64,000 nt of DNA, from the NCBI RefSeq assembly GCF_004364935.1, contig NZ_SOBT01000008.1, forward strand, positions 2,483,534 to 2,547,533, in the 5' to 3' direction. The position numbers were made by a program, and so were the translations under genes. The DNA comes from Panacagrimonas perspica (GTDB lineage: Bacteria; Pseudomonadota; Gammaproteobacteria; Nevskiales; Nevskiaceae). The notes under the pieces are model-generated. The model did no database searches. It had not been told where the DNA came from and saw nothing but the letters and a program-made list of their open reading frames with translations. Within the stretch, counting starts at the first letter, position 1; each line of letters starts with the position of its first letter. This document shows, piece after piece, positions 36,165-42,283 of this stretch.

Positions 36165-36491
36165 ATGCATACGAAGCACTTCGTCCTGACACTGGATGGT
36201 GGCATCCGGGAATTCACGCCCGAGCAGGCTGCGATGGTCGCGGCCGGCACCAATATCCTTCCCGAATTCGCAGACCGGCGCGTGCGCTATCTGCAGGTCA
36301 CGGTGGATAACGAGAGCGGCAACGAGCTGAAGATCCAGACAGCCGGCGCCGCGATCGAGTTCGACCACGGCGGCAAGATGACCCAGGCGGGTCCGCCTTC
36401 GGCCGAAGAGCAGATCAGCCGTTTCGAGCACGACGCGGTCGTGCAATGGGCCATCAAGGACATCCCCAACGCTGCCCCGACGTTCCACTGA
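36165..36491 (+). CDS. Hypothetical protein of 108 residues
   Basis: No family recognised, no signal peptide. Sequence begins MHTKHFVLTLDGGIREFTPEQAAMVAAGTNILPEFADRRVRYLQV and has a beta-strand-rich middle (YLQVTVDNESGNELKIQTAGAAIEFDHGG), then a helical end with EEQISRFEHDAVVQWAIKDI. It lies 18 bases before the acyltransferase gene on the same strand, in one probable transcript with aat and bpt, and diverges from ftsK. A weak promoter-like TTGAAA at 36091 precedes it. Co-transcription suggests a link to protein N-terminal modification, without direct evidence. Confidence 0.65.
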   Translation: MHTKHFVLTLDGGIREFTPEQAAMVAAGTNILPEFADRRVRYLQVTVDNESGNELKIQTAGAAIEFDHGGKMTQAGPPSAEEQISRFEHDAVVQWAIKDIPNAAPTFH

Positions 36492-36509: not shown

Positions 36510-37682
36510 GTGCGAACCCGGCATGTGCAGCGACTGGGTGATGTCGCGGCCGCCGATTGGGACGGGCTGTTCGATGGCGGCTATCCGTTCACTCGCCACG
36601 CTTGGCTATCCGCGCTGGAAAAGCATGGATGCGTCTCCGACACCGAGGGCTGGCAGCCGCATCACCTGATCGCAGAAGACGACGCGGGACGGCCCATCGG
36701 CGCCGTCCCGCTGTACCTGAAGCATCATTCATACGGCGAGTTCGTTTTTGACTTCGCGTGGGCCAATGCCTCGCACGAACTCGGCAAACCCTACTACCCG
36801 AAGCTGCTCTGCGCGATTCCGTTCGTGCCCTCGGTCGGGCCCCGCATCGGCGTGAGCGAAGAATCGGTGCGCCCCGCGATCGCGAGTTATCTGGCGAGAC
36901 TGCCCGAGGCCGAAAAGCTGTCCTCGATCCATGCGCTCTTCGCCGCCGACGTGGACGCCGCCGCCCTGGATGCGCAGGGGCTGATCGAACGCAACGACAC
37001 CCAGTTCCAATGGGACGACCGCGGCTATGGCGACATGGCCGGTTTCCTTGCGAGCCTGACCAGCGAGAAGCGCAAGAAGCTGCAGCGCGAACGTCGCCGC
37101 GTCGCCGAGGCGGGCATCGGCTTCGAGGTCGCGCGTGGGCGCGAGTTGTCGGAGTCCGCGTGGGATCTGGTCTACCGGCTGTACATCAACACTTACCTGG
37201 AACGTGGGCAGTCGCCCTACTTCACGCGCGACTTCCTGGCCGAGATCGGCCGCCACCCGGACCTGGACATGCGACTGGTGTTCGCCGTCCATGAAGGACG
37301 CCGCGTCGCGGTGGCCATCACGCTGGTCGGCGGCGATACGCTGTACGGCCGCCACTGGGGCGCCGAAGCGCACTACCACTCGCTGCACTTCGAGTGCTGC
37401 TATTACCAGGGCATCGAGCTGTGCCTGCGCGAAGGGTTGAAGCGCTTCGACGCCGGCACCCAGGGCGCCCACAAGCATGGCCGCGGGTTCGAGCCGGTCC
37501 GCACCCGTTCCCTGCACCGGATGTCCGACCCGCGCCTGCATCAGGCGGTGGCGCATTTCCTCGCGCGGGAGCGGCGCGCGGTGGCGGCGCGGGAGTCCGA
37601 ATTCATGCAACATACGGCCTATCGCGCAGAGTCCCCGGCGCGAGTCGAAGCTGACCGAGCGCAGAGCCGATTCGATGGATAA
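36510..37682 (+). CDS. Predicted N-acyltransferase, DUF482/COG3146 (GNAT/FemAB-like)
   Basis: 390 residues from GTG 36510. The family's markers are present: N-terminal PFTRHAWLSALEKHGCVSDTEGWQPHHLIAEDD, VFDFAWANASHELGKPYYPKLLCAIPFVPSVGPRI, then MAGFLASLTSEKRKKLQRERRRVAEAGIGFEV and the acceptor-end block YGRHWGAEAHYHSLHFECCYYQGIELCLREGLKRFDAGTQGAHKHGRGFEP. Two GNAT lobes as in Fem aminoacyl-tRNA transferases are plausible. The reaction is not established. The stop lies 8 bases inside the aat start, so expression is coupled to the leucyl/phenylalanyl transferase gene. Context hints at aminoacyl- or acyl-transfer to proteins or cell-wall precursors. Confidence 0.85.
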   Translation: MRTRHVQRLGDVAAADWDGLFDGGYPFTRHAWLSALEKHGCVSDTEGWQPHHLIAEDDAGRPIGAVPLYLKHHSYGEFVFDFAWANASHELGKPYYPKLLCAIPFVPSVGPRIGVSEESVRPAIASYLARLPEAEKLSSIHALFAADVDAAALDAQGLIERNDTQFQWDDRGYGDMAGFLASLTSEKRKKLQRERRRVAEAGIGFEVARGRELSESAWDLVYRLYINTYLERGQSPYFTRDFLAEIGRHPDLDMRLVFAVHEGRRVAVAITLVGGDTLYGRHWGAEAHYHSLHFECCYYQGIELCLREGLKRFDAGTQGAHKHGRGFEPVRTRSLHRMSDPRLHQAVAHFLARERRAVAARESEFMQHTAYRAESPARVEADRAQSRFDG

Positions 37683-38418
37683 CCCGATCCGGCTGCATTG
37701 GCTGGATCCACGCGATCCGCAGCAGCCTTTCCCGCCAGCGCATCTGGCCATGCGTGATCCCAACGGCTTGCTCGCCATCGGCGGCGACCTGTCGGTGGCG
37801 CGCCTGATCCGCGCGTACTCGCAGGGCATCTTCCCCTGGTACAACCCGGACGAGCCCATCCTCTGGTGGAGTCCGGATCCGCGTGCGGTGCTGATTCCGG
37901 AAGATCTGCACGTCTCGCGTTCGCTCGACAAATCGGTGCGCCGCGCCGACTACGCCGTCAGCCTGGATCTGGCCTTCGGCGACGTGCTCACCGAATGCAG
38001 CGGTCCGCGCGCGCGCAGCCGCGGCACCTGGCTGGGCTCGGAAATGCGCGAGGCGTATGCGCAGCTCCATGCACGCGGCTATGCGCACTCGGTCGAGGTC
38101 TGGCGGGACGGCGCCCTGATCGGCGGGCTATACGGCGTGGCACTGGGCCGGGTGTTCTTCGGCGAGTCGATGTTCAGCCGCGCCTCGGACGCCTCCAAGC
38201 TGGCGCTGTACTGGCTGGCGCAACAGATGATCGCCTGGGACTTCGGACTCATCGATTGCCAGGTCGGCTCGGCACATCTCAGGAGCCTTGGCGCAACCGA
38301 CGTGTCGCGCGAACGCTTCCTGAATCTGCTGCGCACCGCCGTGGCACGGTCGCCGCGTACCGGCCAGTGGCGTTTCGACATCGCGCTGCCCTCGTCGCGC
38401 GAGCACCTGCCGGCATGA
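37675..38418 (+). CDS. aat: Leucyl/phenylalanyl-tRNA-protein transferase
   Basis: 247 residues. Diagnostic blocks: FPPAHLAMRDPNGLLAIGGDLSVARLIRAYSQGIFPWYNPDEPILWWSPDPRAVL, GTWLGSEMREAYAQLHARGYAHSVEVWRDGALIGGLYGVALGRVFFGESMFS and SKLALYWLAQQM. It transfers Leu or Phe from tRNA to proteins with N-terminal Arg or Lys, making degrons for ClpS. The gene overlaps the preceding acyltransferase by 8 bases. The partner transferase bpt follows 97 bases later, and clpA and clpS lie just beyond infA. Confidence 0.97.
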   Translation: MDNPIRLHWLDPRDPQQPFPPAHLAMRDPNGLLAIGGDLSVARLIRAYSQGIFPWYNPDEPILWWSPDPRAVLIPEDLHVSRSLDKSVRRADYAVSLDLAFGDVLTECSGPRARSRGTWLGSEMREAYAQLHARGYAHSVEVWRDGALIGGLYGVALGRVFFGESMFSRASDASKLALYWLAQQMIAWDFGLIDCQVGSAHLRSLGATDVSRERFLNLLRTAVARSPRTGQWRFDIALPSSREHLPA

Positions 38419-38515
38419 GCGCGCCCCGACACGGTGCCGCGCAGCGTGGGTGCGCCAGGGGCGCGACCTGCTCACGGCGACGCTCGGGTGCCGCCTGCAG
38501 GCCGAAGGTGCCCCA

Positions 38516-39223
38516 GTGAGCGCGCGCGTCCGCCTGTTCCTGTCCACCGAGCATCCCTGCGGGTACCTGCCCGCGCGGGCCGCGCGCAGCCTGTTCGTGG
38601 ACCCGGACTACATCCTCAATCCGCAGCGCTACGAAAGCCTGCTCGAGCAGGGCTTCCGCCGCGGCGGCAATCACGTCTACCGGCCGCGCTGCGAGTCCTG
38701 CCGCTCGTGCATCCCGGCGCGCGTGAAGGTCCTGGACTTCCTGCCCACCCGCACGCAGCGCCGCTGCGAGCAACGCAACGCCGATCTGCACCTGCACATC
38801 CGCAAGGACATCACCGACGAGCAGTTCACGCTCTACCAGCGCTATCTGCGGGCGCGACATGACGGCGGCGGCATGAATCCGGAAGACAAGTCCGGGTTCC
38901 ACAATTTCCTGAACTGCGGCTGGGGCGCCACCGAATTCTGGGAATTCAGCCTGGACCAGCGCCTGCTCGCCTGCGCCGTGGTGGACCGCGTGCCGCAGGG
39001 CCTGTCGGCCGTCTACACCTTCTTCGACCCCGACGAGACCGCCCGCGGCCTGGGCACCTATGCCGTGCTCAGCCAGATCCGGGCGGCCCGGTCGATGGGC
39101 CTGCAGTTCGTCTACCTGGGCTACTGGGTGCCGGACAGCCCGAAGATGGACTACAAGAAGAGCTTCCGGCCGCTGGAGGTCCTCGGGACCCAGGGCTGGG
39201 AAGGCCTGGCCGAGGAGTCCTGA
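38516..39223 (+). CDS. bpt: Aspartate/glutamate leucyltransferase (arginyltransferase-like)
   Basis: 235 residues from GTG 38516; an in-frame GTG at 38450 would add 22 residues unlike the family. It carries [47 protein letters not shown] (paired CxxC), FEF-like [20 protein letters not shown] and [27 protein letters not shown]. Bpt attaches Leu to N-terminal Asp or Glu, feeding ClpS. The order aat-bpt-infA-(clpA-clpS) equals that of Pseudomonas. The N-terminal Cys cluster is typical of Ate/Bpt. Confidence 0.95.
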
Positions 39224-39315: not shown

Positions 39316-39534
39316 ATGGCCAAAGAAGACCACATCGAAATGCCCGGCATCGTCGCCGAGACGCTGCCCAATACGACCTTCCGCGTGAAGCTGGAGAACG
39401 GGCATGTGGTCACGGCGCACATCTCCGGTCGCATGCGCAAGAACTACATCCGCATCCTCACCGGCGACAAGGTGACGGTACAGCTGACGCCCTACGACCT
39501 CACCAAGGGTCGCATCACGTTCCGCGACAAATAA
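39316..39534 (+). CDS. infA: Translation initiation factor IF-1
   Basis: 72 residues, the standard length. [72 protein letters not shown] shows the OB fold with the family's GxxxExLPNxxFRV and [12 protein letters not shown] blocks, given here in part. IF-1 binds the 30S A site with IF-2 and IF-3. A strong terminator follows after a single palindromic repeat. Confidence 0.98.
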
Positions 39535-39570: not shown

Positions 39571-39598
39571 GAAAAAGCCCGCTTTCGCGGGCTTTTTC
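39571..39598. terminator. Bidirectional Rho-independent terminator of infA and clpA
   Basis: GAAAAAGCCCG-CTTT-CGGGCTTTTTC: GC stem flanked by A and T runs on both sides, so it works for infA (plus) and for clpA (minus), whose stop is 16 bases away. Confidence 0.95.
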
Positions 39599-39613: not shown

Positions 39614-41896
39614 TCAGACCGGTTCCAGCGCCACCGTCTTTTCGCGCGCTTCCAGCTCGAAGTCGATCTTTCCGTCCTTAACCGACACGTGCACGCGACC
39701 GCCGTGCGCCAGCTTGCCGAACAGCAGCTCCTCGGCCAGCGGACGCTTGAGGTTCTCCTGGATGACGCGAGCCATCGGACGGGCGCCCATCTTGGGATCG
39801 TAGCCCCGCTCGCCCAGCCAGACGCGTGCGTCCTCGTCGATGTCCAGCACCACACCCTTGGACGCGAGCTGCTCTTCGAGCTGCAGCAGGAACTTGTCCA
39901 CCACGCGCGCGATCTCGGTGCGGCCCAGCGCCGCGAACGGGATCACCGCGTCCAGGCGGTTGCGGAATTCCGGCGTGAACATCTTGCGGATGACTTCCAG
40001 CGCGTCGGTCAGATGGCTCTGCTCGGCGAAGCCCATCGAACGGCGCGAAGACTCCTCGGCACCGGCGTTGGTGGTCATCACCAGGATCACGTTGCGGAAA
40101 TCGGCCTTGCGACCGTTGTTGTCCGTCAGCGTGCCGTGGTCCATGACCTGCAGCAGCAGGTTGAACACGTCCGGATGCGCCTTCTCGATCTCGTCGAGCA
40201 GGATCACGCAGTGCGGGTGCTTGATGACCTGCTCGGTCAGCAGGCCGCCCTGGTCGAAGCCGACGTAACCCGGGGGCGCACCGATCAGGCGCGACACCGT
40301 ATGCCGCTCCATGTACTCGGACATGTCGAAGCGGATCAGCTCGATGCCCAGCAGGCTGGCGAGCTGGCGCGTGACTTCCGTCTTGCCCACGCCCGTCGGG
40401 CCGGCGAGCAGGAAGTTGCCGATCGGCTTGTCGGGGTTGCCGAGGCCCGAACGCGACAGCTTGATACTGGCCGTGAGCTGCTCGATGGCGGCGTCCTGGC
40501 CGAAGATCACGAGCTTGAGGTCACGCTCCAGCGTGGCGAGGCGGTCACGATCGTTGTTGGACACGCTCTTGGCCGGGATGCGCGCGATCTTGGCCACCGT
40601 CTCCTCGATGTCGCGCACCTGCACCGTCTTGCGGCGCTTGGACTCGGGCAGCAGGCGCAGGCGCGCTGCCGCCTCGTCGATGACGTCGATGGCCTTGTCC
40701 GGCAGCAGGCGGTCGGTGATGTGGCGCGCCGACAGTTCCACCGCCGAGCGCAGCGCCCCGCGGGTGTACTGCACGGCGTGGTGCTCCTCGAAGCGCGTGC
40801 GCAGGCCTTCGAGGATCTTCACCGCATCCTCGACGCTGGGCTCGGTCACGTCGATCTTCTGGAAGCGACGCGCCAGCGCGCGATCCTTCTCGAAGACACC
40901 GCGATATTCCTGGTACGTGGTCGAACCGATGCAGCGCAGCGTGCCGCCGGCGAGCAGCGGCTTGAGCAGGTTGGACGCATCCATGACGCCGCCGCTGGCG
41001 GCGCCGGCACCGATGATCATGTGGATCTCGTCGATGAACACGATCGCACCCGGCATCTGGGTGAGTTCGGTCATGACGGCCTTGAAGCGCTTCTCGAAAT
41101 CACCGCGGTACTTGGTGCCGGCGATCAGGCTGCCGAGGTCGAGCGAGAACACGATCGAGCCCTTCAGCAGCTCGGGCACCTTGTCCTCGACGATCAGCCA
41201 GGCCAGGCCTTCGGCGATCGCCGTCTTGCCGACGCCCGCCTCGCCGACCAGCAACGGGTTGTTCTTGCGGCGGCGGCACAGCGTCTGCATAACGCGCTCG
41301 ATCTCGTGCTCGCGCCCGATCAGCGGATCGATCTGGCCGCGCGTGGCGCGCTCGTTGAGATTGACGGCGAACTGTTCCAGCGCCGTCTTGCCCTGCGCCG
41401 TCTTGCCGTCTTCCTTTTCCTCGCTTTCCTGCGAGTTCTCGGACGGCTGCTGCGCGCTCGGGTTGTTCTTGGCGATGCCGTGCGAGATGAAGTTCACGAC
41501 GTCGAGGCGGCTGACACCCTGCTCGCCCAGCAGGTACACCGCGTGGGTGTCCTTCTCGGCGAACATCGCGACCAGCACGTTGAGCGTGGTGACCTGCTTC
41601 TTCCCCGCGGCCTGCACGTGGTAGATCGCCCGCTGCAGCACGCGCTGGAACGACAGCGTCGGCTGCACCTCGGTCTGGTCTCCGCCGCGCGTGGCGTGGA
41701 TGTTGTGGCGGATGTAGTCGCGCAGTTGCTGCTCGAGCTTCTCGAGGTCCGCCCCGCTCGCGGTGAGGACCTCCGAGACATTGGCGTCGGAAAGCAGTGC
41801 CAGCAGCAGGTGCTCGACGGTGAGCAGCTCGTGGCCTTCGCCGCGGGCAGCGAGAAACGCGGCATCCAGCGCTTTTTGAAGTTCGTCAGACAGCAT
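39614..41896 (-). CDS. clpA: ATP-dependent Clp protease ATP-binding subunit ClpA
   Basis: 760 residues. The N-domain that binds ClpS (MLSDELQKALDAAFLAARGEGHELLTVEHLLLALLSD) is intact. An acidic linker (SENSQESEEKEDG) separates it from D1, with Walker A GEAGVGKTAIAEG and Walker B VFIDEIHMIIGAG. D2 has GPTGVGKTEVTRQ, pore loop GAPPGYVGFDQGG and DEIEKAHPDVFNLLLQ. It unfolds N-degron and ssrA substrates into ClpP. Downstream of clpS on the same strand, with 60 bases between. No clpP in the window. Confidence 0.97.
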   Translation of the reverse strand: MLSDELQKALDAAFLAARGEGHELLTVEHLLLALLSDANVSEVLTASGADLEKLEQQLRDYIRHNIHATRGGDQTEVQPTLSFQRVLQRAIYHVQAAGKKQVTTLNVLVAMFAEKDTHAVYLLGEQGVSRLDVVNFISHGIAKNNPSAQQPSENSQESEEKEDGKTAQGKTALEQFAVNLNERATRGQIDPLIGREHEIERVMQTLCRRRKNNPLLVGEAGVGKTAIAEGLAWLIVEDKVPELLKGSIVFSLDLGSLIAGTKYRGDFEKRFKAVMTELTQMPGAIVFIDEIHMIIGAGAASGGVMDASNLLKPLLAGGTLRCIGSTTYQEYRGVFEKDRALARRFQKIDVTEPSVEDAVKILEGLRTRFEEHHAVQYTRGALRSAVELSARHITDRLLPDKAIDVIDEAAARLRLLPESKRRKTVQVRDIEETVAKIARIPAKSVSNNDRDRLATLERDLKLVIFGQDAAIEQLTASIKLSRSGLGNPDKPIGNFLLAGPTGVGKTEVTRQLASLLGIELIRFDMSEYMERHTVSRLIGAPPGYVGFDQGGLLTEQVIKHPHCVILLDEIEKAHPDVFNLLLQVMDHGTLTDNNGRKADFRNVILVMTTNAGAEESSRRSMGFAEQSHLTDALEVIRKMFTPEFRNRLDAVIPFAALGRTEIARVVDKFLLQLEEQLASKGVVLDIDEDARVWLGERGYDPKMGARPMARVIQENLKRPLAEELLFGKLAHGGRVHVSVKDGKIDFELEAREKTVALEPV

Positions 41897-41956: not shown

Positions 41957-42283
41957 TCAGGCTTTTTCCAGCACGGTCAGCAGCGGGTGCTGATGCTGGC
42001 GCGCGTAGGCATTGACCTGCGCGGTCTTGGTCTCGGCGATCTCGGCGGGATAGACACCGGCGACGCCGCGGCCCTTGGTATGCACGTGCAGCATGATCTG
42101 CACCGCCGATTCACGGGTGTGGTGGAAGAACTGCTGCAAAACCTGGACCACGAACTCCATCGGCGTGAAGTCGTCGTTCACCACAACAACCTTGAACATC
42201 GGAGGTTGTTTGGTCTTCGGCTTGGCCGCCTCGACGACATTGTCGAGTTCCGAGCCCGGAGGGATTCGGGGTGTGTCGCTCAT
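41957..42283 (-). CDS. clpS: ClpS adaptor for N-degron recognition
   Basis: 108 residues. The folded core has PPMFKVVVVNDDFTPMEFVVQVLQQFFHHTRESAVQIMLHVHTKGRGVAGVYPAEIAETKTAQVNAYARQHQHPLL. It contains the NDDFTPMEFV pocket segment (Asp and Met that gate the N-degron pocket) and the HxxGxG(V/A)xG binding loop. ClpS delivers Leu/Phe/Trp/Tyr N-termini to ClpA and blocks other ClpA substrates. The flexible N-terminal extension (about 25 residues) that enters ClpA is also present. Confidence 0.96.
   Translation of the reverse strand: MSDTPRIPPGSELDNVVEAAKPKTKQPPMFKVVVVNDDFTPMEFVVQVLQQFFHHTRESAVQIMLHVHTKGRGVAGVYPAEIAETKTAQVNAYARQHQHPLLTVLEKA

What the first reader, a model, noticed from the sequence alone, without database searches (positions are those of the whole stretch)
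36510..38418. A predicted N-acyltransferase is translationally coupled to aat in the N-degron gene cluster
Seen: the DUF482-type gene ends 8 bases inside aat; bpt, infA, clpA and clpS follow. Known: Aat and Bpt share a GNAT-like fold with Fem transferases and use aminoacyl-tRNA. Inference: the coupled protein may be another protein N-terminal (or lysine) modifier, possibly using aminoacyl-tRNA or acyl-CoA, that makes or blocks ClpS degrons. The adjoining 108-residue gene may belong to it.
Basis: partly seen in the sequence, partly recalled or inferred. Interest (0 to 1): 0.6.

Follow-up and report, generated by a model that had tools for sequence, protein, structure and literature searches.

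The report
FemX-fold transferase coupled to aat
A widespread bacterial enzyme of unknown function, predicted to be shaped like enzymes that hand amino acids from tRNA to other molecules, overlaps a gene for tagging proteins for degradation here and in many relatives, which makes it a good but unproven candidate for another tagging enzyme.

Summary
A PF04339 (FemAB_like, DUF482/COG3146) gene, 36510-37682, overlaps aat by 8 bases; a 108-codon gene ends 18 bases upstream; bpt and infA follow; clpA and clpS face them on the other strand. Of 299 sampled Pseudomonadota genomes 172 hold a strong PF04339 match, and all 172 also hold aat. Direct contact with aat is a lineage trait: 62 of the 80 nearest named loci, but 8 of 70 examined class members. 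One locus (L168) keeps the pair without the other window genes. In 11 of 20 loci picked from other classes the gene faces clpA-clpS instead. AlphaFold (pLDDT 94.6) gives a double-GNAT fold whose best PDB matches are FemX, streptothricin aminoacyl-tRNA-dependent synthases and MprF. An invariant Lys322 lies about where such enzymes carry their catalytic lysine. So: probably an amide-forming, aminoacyl-tRNA-dependent transferase of unknown acceptor; a role in making or blocking N-degrons is plausible but unshown. A cell-wall role looks unlikely, as Arabidopsis has a homologue. The small upstream protein was found in 1 of 299 genomes (this one) and beside the gene in 22 fetched loci; no recognisable fold.

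The parts
36165..36491 (+). ORF of 108 codons, no known family; accessory gene upstream of the transferase
   Evidence: homologues just upstream of the PF04339 gene in 22 fetched loci; in 1 of 299 Pseudomonadota genomes, this one; model pLDDT 87.2, no fold match
36510..37682 (+). PF04339 FemAB_like (DUF482/COG3146) predicted transferase, 390 aa
   Evidence: PF04339 E 3.4e-129, PF13480 E 5.4e-14; AlphaFold pLDDT 94.6; FemX, Sba18/Sbb17 and MprF best folds
37062..37109 (+). codons for the basic helix, residues 185-200 (SEKRKKLQRERRRVAE), a candidate tRNA-contacting helix
   Evidence: helix 185-200 in the model; R188 171 of 171, K189 170 of 171; role inferred from PMC12945691 section 7
37356..37361 (+). 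codons for W283-G284, invariant
   Evidence: 171 of 171; G284 aligns with FemX G258 in a non-significant profile match
37473..37475 (+). codon for Lys322, candidate catalytic lysine
   Evidence: 171 of 171; lies at the conserved Lys of PF13480 proteins L177 and L178 but one column off in the alignment made
37675..37682 (+). 8-base overlap of the PF04339 gene and aat
37675..38418 (+). aat, leucyl/phenylalanyl-tRNA-protein transferase, 247 aa
   Evidence: PF03588 8.8e-72, TIGR00667 2.5e-63
38516..39223 (+). bpt (bacterial ate-type aminoacyl-tRNA-protein transferase); an earlier in-frame start exists at 38450
   Evidence: ATE_N 2.1e-23 and ATE_C 7.3e-41 for the frame from 38450
39316..39534 (+). 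infA, IF-1
   Evidence: TIGR00008 1.5e-34
39572..39597 (.). symmetric A-tract/GC stem/T-tract hairpin between the convergent infA and clpA, possibly a shared terminator
   Evidence: read by eye; the scan did not list it
39614..41896 (-). clpA
   Evidence: Clp_N 8.5e-10, AAA_2 3.1e-65, ClpB_D2-small 1.2e-25
41957..42283 (-). clpS, the only PF02617 match in this genome
   Evidence: PF02617 1e-34

Best explanation
The gene encodes a soluble FemX-fold transferase. Two GNAT-like domains enclose a cleft; an amino acid on the 3' end of an aminoacyl-tRNA is probably passed to an amine to form an amide, with Lys322 placed about as Lys305 is in FemX and the basic helix 185-200 touching the tRNA. The acceptor is unknown. 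Because the gene overlaps aat here and is linked to clpA-clpS elsewhere, a protein N-terminus (or another protein amine) is the acceptor I would test first. Shown here: gene order, overlap, family, predicted fold, invariant residues, co-occurrence with aat. Inferred: co-transcription, tRNA as donor, lysine role, any protein acceptor, any effect on ClpS/ClpAP degradation.
For: Fold: pLDDT 94.6; Foldseek ranks 1-10 are FemX and the synthases Sbb17/Sba18 (9.3e-13 to 8.8e-10); VIA Z 19.7 FemX (rmsd 4.8-4.9, 294-297 aligned), 19.6 Sba18 (3.5, 267), 19.6 MprF (3.3, 265), then 16.3 for an uncharacterised protein and 13-15 for acetyl- and myristoyl-CoA enzymes. Lys322, W283, G284 and R188 are the same in 171 of 171 sequences, some genomes counted twice; Lys322 falls at the lysine of PF13480 proteins L177 and L178, one column off; FemX Lys305 and DhpH-C Lys329 are the published catalytic lysines (PMC12945691 section 7). 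Linkage: aat directly downstream in 62 of 80 named loci; clpA within about 5 kb and clpS within about 7 kb in 11 of 20 loci of other classes; the pair without the other window genes in L168. All 172 strong carriers have aat; none of the 27 genomes without aat has a PF04339 match.
Against: Sequence match to FemX is not significant (E 0.035; 0.21), and profile comparison with Aat and Bpt finds nothing. Foldseek also ranks acetyl-CoA-type tandem GNATs close behind (clavulanate-pathway protein 1.4e-9, rank 11; VipF 4.7e-9, rank 15). R281-x-x-G284 is invariant too and resembles the first half of the CoA-binding motif of GNATs (motif recalled), although the last Gly/Ala is not kept. Elsewhere the gene sits by unrelated genes (NAD synthase in L120; DUF3309, DUF2790 and ABC-transporter genes on a P. 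aeruginosa plasmid). Arabidopsis has a homologue though a 2010 study found no Aat gene there (passages). Co-occurrence with aat is not corrected for descent, and the listed aat-less genomes are mostly small.
Confidence: 0.45

Rival explanations
1. Inherited gene order: the enzyme has an unrelated housekeeping job, and sits before aat only because one block (rarA-lolA-ftsK-[trxB-like or ORF108]-PF04339-aat-[bpt]-infA / clpA-clpS) was kept in part of the Gammaproteobacteria.
For: Only 8 of 70 examined class members have the direct contact, 3 of 20 in the first batch read; most contacts come with the same flanking genes; the gene occurs in other contexts.
Against: A second linkage, to clpA-clpS, outside the class, although both could descend from one ancestral order; the pair without the other window genes in L168; tight spacing with repeated 4-base overlaps; 172 of 172 carriers have aat.
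Confidence: 0.4
2. An acyl-CoA- or acyl-ACP-dependent N-acyltransferase acting on a small molecule or a protein, as the name 'predicted N-acyltransferase' suggests.
For: GNAT fold; acetyl-CoA tandem GNATs among the Foldseek hits; invariant R281-x-x-G284; the cotton homologue of At2g23390 was named acyl-CoA N-acyltransferase, and its silencing gave sterile plants, which the authors tie to lipid and jasmonate metabolism (PMC4488762, passages).
Against: The closest folds are tRNA-dependent; the last Gly/Ala of the CoA motif is not conserved (A in 18 of 67); I saw no enzyme assay in the passages of the cotton paper.
Confidence: 0.3
3. A modifier of protein N-termini or lysines that caps, and so blocks, N-degrons rather than making them.
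For: Same linkage evidence; N-myristoyltransferases, which modify protein N-termini, are among the lower fold matches (Z about 13).
Against: No acceptor evidence at all.
Confidence: 0.15
4. Peptidoglycan branching enzyme, as the Pfam description says.
For: Pfam text 'Peptidogalycan biosysnthesis/recognition'; FemX is the top fold match.
Against: Strong matches in 172 of 299 Pseudomonadota, which in general have no amino-acid cross-bridges (recalled); a homologue in Arabidopsis; no cell-wall gene recognised among the few neighbours that were put to Pfam or came annotated.
Confidence: 0.05

Closest known systems
PF04339 FemAB_like (DUF482, COG3146)
   Same: full-length match, E 3.4e-129; this is a typical member
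   Different: no established function found for the family; the working prediction 'pterin-dependent enzyme' for COG3146 is listed as invalidated after a test with the Xanthomonas campestris protein (PMC3223725 Table 3, passage)
FemX/FemABX transferases and the streptothricin-type aminoacyl-tRNA-dependent synthases (Sbb17, Sba18)
   Same: double-GNAT fold, a basic helix early in domain 2, a lysine after strand 312-314
   Different: 9-18% identity in the VIA alignments; no significant sequence match; acceptor unknown here
Aat and Bpt
   Same: neighbours in one run of genes; both match the GNAT profile PF13480 that also matches the PF04339 protein (Aat 0.0091, Bpt 1.8e-4, PF04339 protein 5.4e-14)
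   Different: separate Pfam families; profile-profile comparison negative
MprF / L-PGS synthase domain
   Same: VIA Z 18.0-19.6; aminoacyl-tRNA donor (recalled)
   Different: MprF has an added membrane part and a lipid acceptor (recalled); here 390 residues, with 1-355 spanned by the double-GNAT matches

Membership tests
PF04339 FemAB_like | profile match above the curated cut-off over the whole length | tested here: met
   431.6 bits against a cut-off of 27, profile 3-368 of 369
FemABX-type aminoacyl-tRNA transferases | two GNAT domains with the substrate cleft between them | tested here: met
   predicted model; VIA Z 19.7 to FemX over 294-297 residues; the cleft itself was not inspected
FemABX-type aminoacyl-tRNA transferases | catalytic lysine (FemX Lys305, DhpH-C Lys329) | tested here: inconclusive
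   Lys322 171 of 171, at the PF13480 lysine of L177 and L178 but one column off; the FemX profile alignments stop short of it
FemABX-type aminoacyl-tRNA transferases | positively charged helix of domain 2 contacting the tRNA | tested here: inconclusive
   a basic helix 185-200 exists; it was not superposed on FemX's helix
FemABX-type aminoacyl-tRNA transferases | significant sequence kinship with FemX | tested here: inconclusive
   best E 0.035 and 0.21
FemABX-type aminoacyl-tRNA transferases | transfer from aminoacyl-tRNA | not testable with these tools
   needs an assay
Aat (PF03588) or Bpt (PF04376/PF04377) | match to the family profile | tested here: not met
   only PF04339 and PF13480 match at E up to 1; hhalign against A2 and A3 negative
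acyl-CoA-dependent GNAT | pyrophosphate-binding motif [QR]xxGx[GA] between strand 4 and helix 3 (recalled) | tested here: inconclusive
   R281 and G284 invariant; residue 286 varies, most often A 18, D 8, S 7, E 5, I 5 of 67
N-degron pathway component | changes which proteins ClpS binds | not testable with these tools
   needs a mutant and proteomics

The most novel reading that the evidence does not exclude
Probability: 0.1. Interest if true: 0.9.

Novelty: new member of a known kind. Interest (0 to 1): 0.45.

Why it matters
PF04339 is a widespread family without an established function (172 of 299 sampled Pseudomonadota; also in one cyanobacterial control genome, and Arabidopsis). A FemX-like predicted fold, an invariant candidate catalytic lysine and links to aat and to clpA-clpS give it a concrete, testable hypothesis. 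If right, bacterial and perhaps plastid N-degron tagging would have an unrecognised branch.

Tried and rejected
Cell-wall role: see rivals. Gene fusion: a long open frame (1063 residues) over aat in G186 runs antisense to other genes and is no sign of a fusion. Kinship with Aat or Bpt by profile comparison: negative; Aat and Bpt structures are not among the 50 rows shown by VIA, which excludes nothing. ORF108: no significant Pfam, NCBIfam or PDB sequence match; model pLDDT 87.2, Foldseek best E 0.14, best VIA Z 6.7, rmsd 2.7, 65 aligned: uninformative. Cysteine 297 as nucleophile: rejected, Ala in 3 of 171. Plasmid copies: 16 plasmid records match; in the one opened, pHOU1-1 of P. aeruginosa, the neighbours look chromosomal. 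Literature: searches for DUF482, COG3146, PF04339, At2g23390 or the Pfam name, aat+bpt+N-end rule+gene cluster+acyltransferase, ClpS+Aat+acyltransferase+operon, four of N-degron/ClpS/Bpt/Aat/N-terminal modification, and FemAB+ClpS listed no paper that I could see tying this family to the N-degron pathway; most hits were seen as listings only. Passages were read of PMC3223725, PMC8976061, PMC4488762, PMC3531887, PMC12419801 (nothing of use) and PMC2988409; one whole section and passages of PMC12945691.

Limits: the presence test (Fisher p 1.6e-11) ignores descent; 18 of the 20 listed aat-less genomes are of 2.2 Mb or less (7 more not listed). Eight weak PF04339 genomes (E above 1e-12) were dropped before that count; all eight have aat. 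For the contact count, 72 class members have a strong match; 65 had an aat position, 5 more (G078, G136, G142, G169, G194) were judged from 20-kb loci without aat, and 2 (G175, G238) were not examined; 27 of the 65 have the genes on different contigs and counted as not adjacent. Loci L152-L171 were chosen partly because contact was already known and were not used for rates. Other phyla could not be sampled; only 14 named control genomes speak for them.

Full report
Observation. The window holds, on the plus strand, ORF108 (36165-36491), a PF04339 gene (36510-37682), aat (37675-38418), bpt (38516-39223) and infA (39316-39534), then clpA and clpS on the minus strand. The PF04339 gene and aat share bases 37675-37682, 8 in all. 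The gaps are 18 bases (ORF108 to PF04339) and 97 (aat to bpt, unless bpt starts at 38450), so one transcript is likely; that is inference. A symmetric hairpin at 39572-39597 lies between infA and clpA (by eye; not listed by the scan). clpA and clpS are neighbours, not operon members.

Family and spread. PF04339 has one match in this genome. In 299 Pseudomonadota genomes of at least 90% completeness, 180 have a match; 172 are strong (eight weak ones dropped). All 172 have aat, against 100 of the other 127; Fisher p 1.6e-11, uncorrected for descent. Of 14 named control genomes, PF04339 is in Caulobacter vibrioides and Synechococcus elongatus; aat in these two, Escherichia coli and Deinobacterium; ClpS in these four and Corynebacterium; ATE_C in Caulobacter alone. 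Arabidopsis At2g23390 is listed under COG3146 (PMC3223725); it was detected in a soluble chloroplast proteome study, whose table gives its location as 'M' (PMC3531887, passage), so its place is not firm. A 2010 study found no Aat candidate in Arabidopsis (PMC2988409, passages).

Neighbourhood. Among the 80 nearest named loci (a set biased to close relatives), 62 have aat directly downstream on the same strand; of the 18 others, 9 (all labelled Alphaproteobacteria, Parvibaculum or Parvibaculaceae) have clpA-clpS facing the gene. In the even sample, 8 of 70 examined class members have direct contact (G000, G031, G042, G090, G145, G182, G228, G230); two more have aat about 1.6 and 2.9 kb away (G094, G248); six genomes of one family have it 13.6-20 kb away (G019, G082, G171, G178, G190, G284); the rest are far or on other contigs. 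In L168 (G182) none of the other eight window genes searched for lies in the 20 kb read. Of 20 loci picked from 100 other-class genomes, 11 have clpA and clpS within about 5 and 7 kb, facing the gene (L133, L136, L140-L142, L144-L149), and 2 have aat in the 20 kb (L133, L148). In L141 the order is RidA-like, GDPD, PF04339, HIT, then clpA-clpS facing. Elsewhere it lies by an NAD synthase (L120) or, on a P. aeruginosa plasmid, between a DUF3309 gene and DUF2790 and ABC-transporter genes. So two links to the N-degron set exist, but neither is universal; both may descend from one ancestral arrangement, since in each the gene faces clpA-clpS.

ORF108. Its homologues lie upstream of the PF04339 gene in 22 fetched loci, from Nevskiales, Salinisphaera and a few loci with other labels. 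A whole-genome search finds it in 1 of 299 Pseudomonadota genomes, this one. In 29 other loci a thioredoxin-reductase-like gene (Pyr_redox_2 in L050) lies near the PF04339 gene, in most just upstream; the two sets do not overlap. ORF108 has an invariant FEHD motif in 18 aligned sequences and no recognisable fold. It is an accessory, not a required partner.

Structure and mechanism. AlphaFold with 67 sequences gives pLDDT 94.6, pTM 0.91. Foldseek's ten best are FemX and the streptothricin aminoacyl-tRNA-dependent synthases Sbb17/Sba18 (9.3e-13 to 8.8e-10); tandem acetyl-CoA GNATs follow from rank 11. VIA gives Z 18.0-19.7 for FemX, FemA, Sba18/Sbb17 and MprF/L-PGS, 16.3 for an uncharacterised Bacteroides protein, and 13-15 for acetyl- and myristoyl-CoA enzymes. 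Sequence profiles reach FemX and Sba18 only weakly (E 0.035 and 0.25; 0.21 and 0.15 with the C-terminal domain). In 171 sequences (some genomes twice), W48, G76, E77, F80, D81, P97, P104, P107, R161, R188, G280, R281, W283, G284, H293, F294, G316, Q318, G319, H321, K322, R325 and P329 are unchanged; a further relative, L179, has Gln for H321. A 2026 review says FemX-type enzymes have two GNAT domains, a positively charged helix of domain 2 proposed to meet the tRNA acceptor stem, and one catalytic lysine (FemX Lys305; DhpH-C Lys329, with Trp284, Asn325 and Phe328 contributing) (PMC12945691, section 7). The PF04339 protein has a basic helix 185-200 and Lys322 in a short helix (320-325) after strand 312-314; Lys322 falls at the lysine of two PF13480 proteins, L177 of this genome and L178 of a congener, one column off in the alignment. 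I take this as support, not proof, for a tRNA-dependent, amide-forming reaction. Against it stands the invariant R281-x-x-G284, half of a CoA motif. The argolaphos protein AlpO, annotated COG3146, was called a peptide aminoacyl-tRNA ligase by its authors, who add that more experiments are needed (PMC8976061, passages).

Verdict. Observation confirmed. The N-degron role is a fair hypothesis with circumstantial support only. The protein is an ordinary member of a known family of unknown function; what this report adds is the combined fold, residue and linkage case.

Noticed in passing
L152, L153 (G019, G178) and G082, G171, G190, G284: In one gammaproteobacterial family (f5) the PF04339 gene lies 13.6-20 kb from aat in six sampled genomes; aat-bpt are together in L152 and L153. 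Looks like a loosened link.
   Followed up: partly
36165-36491; loci: ORF108 and a thioredoxin-reductase-like gene occur next to the PF04339 gene in different lineages, with no locus among those read holding both.
   Followed up: partly
L177 (G000:C1:698049-698489): The same genome has a separate PF13480 protein (480-residue open frame) with a TGRDLSKLRWGP stretch, another possible Fem-like transferase.
   Followed up: no
36510-39223: All three consecutive enzymes (PF04339 protein, Aat, Bpt) match one GNAT profile, PF13480, at E 5.4e-14, 0.0091 and 1.8e-4.
   Followed up: partly
L141, L136, L145: In these other-class loci a RidA-like gene and a GDPD-like gene precede the PF04339 gene, which faces clpA-clpS; in L141 an HIT gene follows (families by profile in L141 only).
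   Followed up: partly
G190, G284, G082: PF04339 is matched in two pieces in one open frame, suggesting an insertion near profile position 167 (G190, G284) or 270 (G082).
   Followed up: no
H1 (NZ_CP042268.1 64004-65128): A P. aeruginosa plasmid carries a copy with what look like chromosomal neighbours (acetate symporter, ppiA); the wider plasmid was not read.
   Followed up: partly
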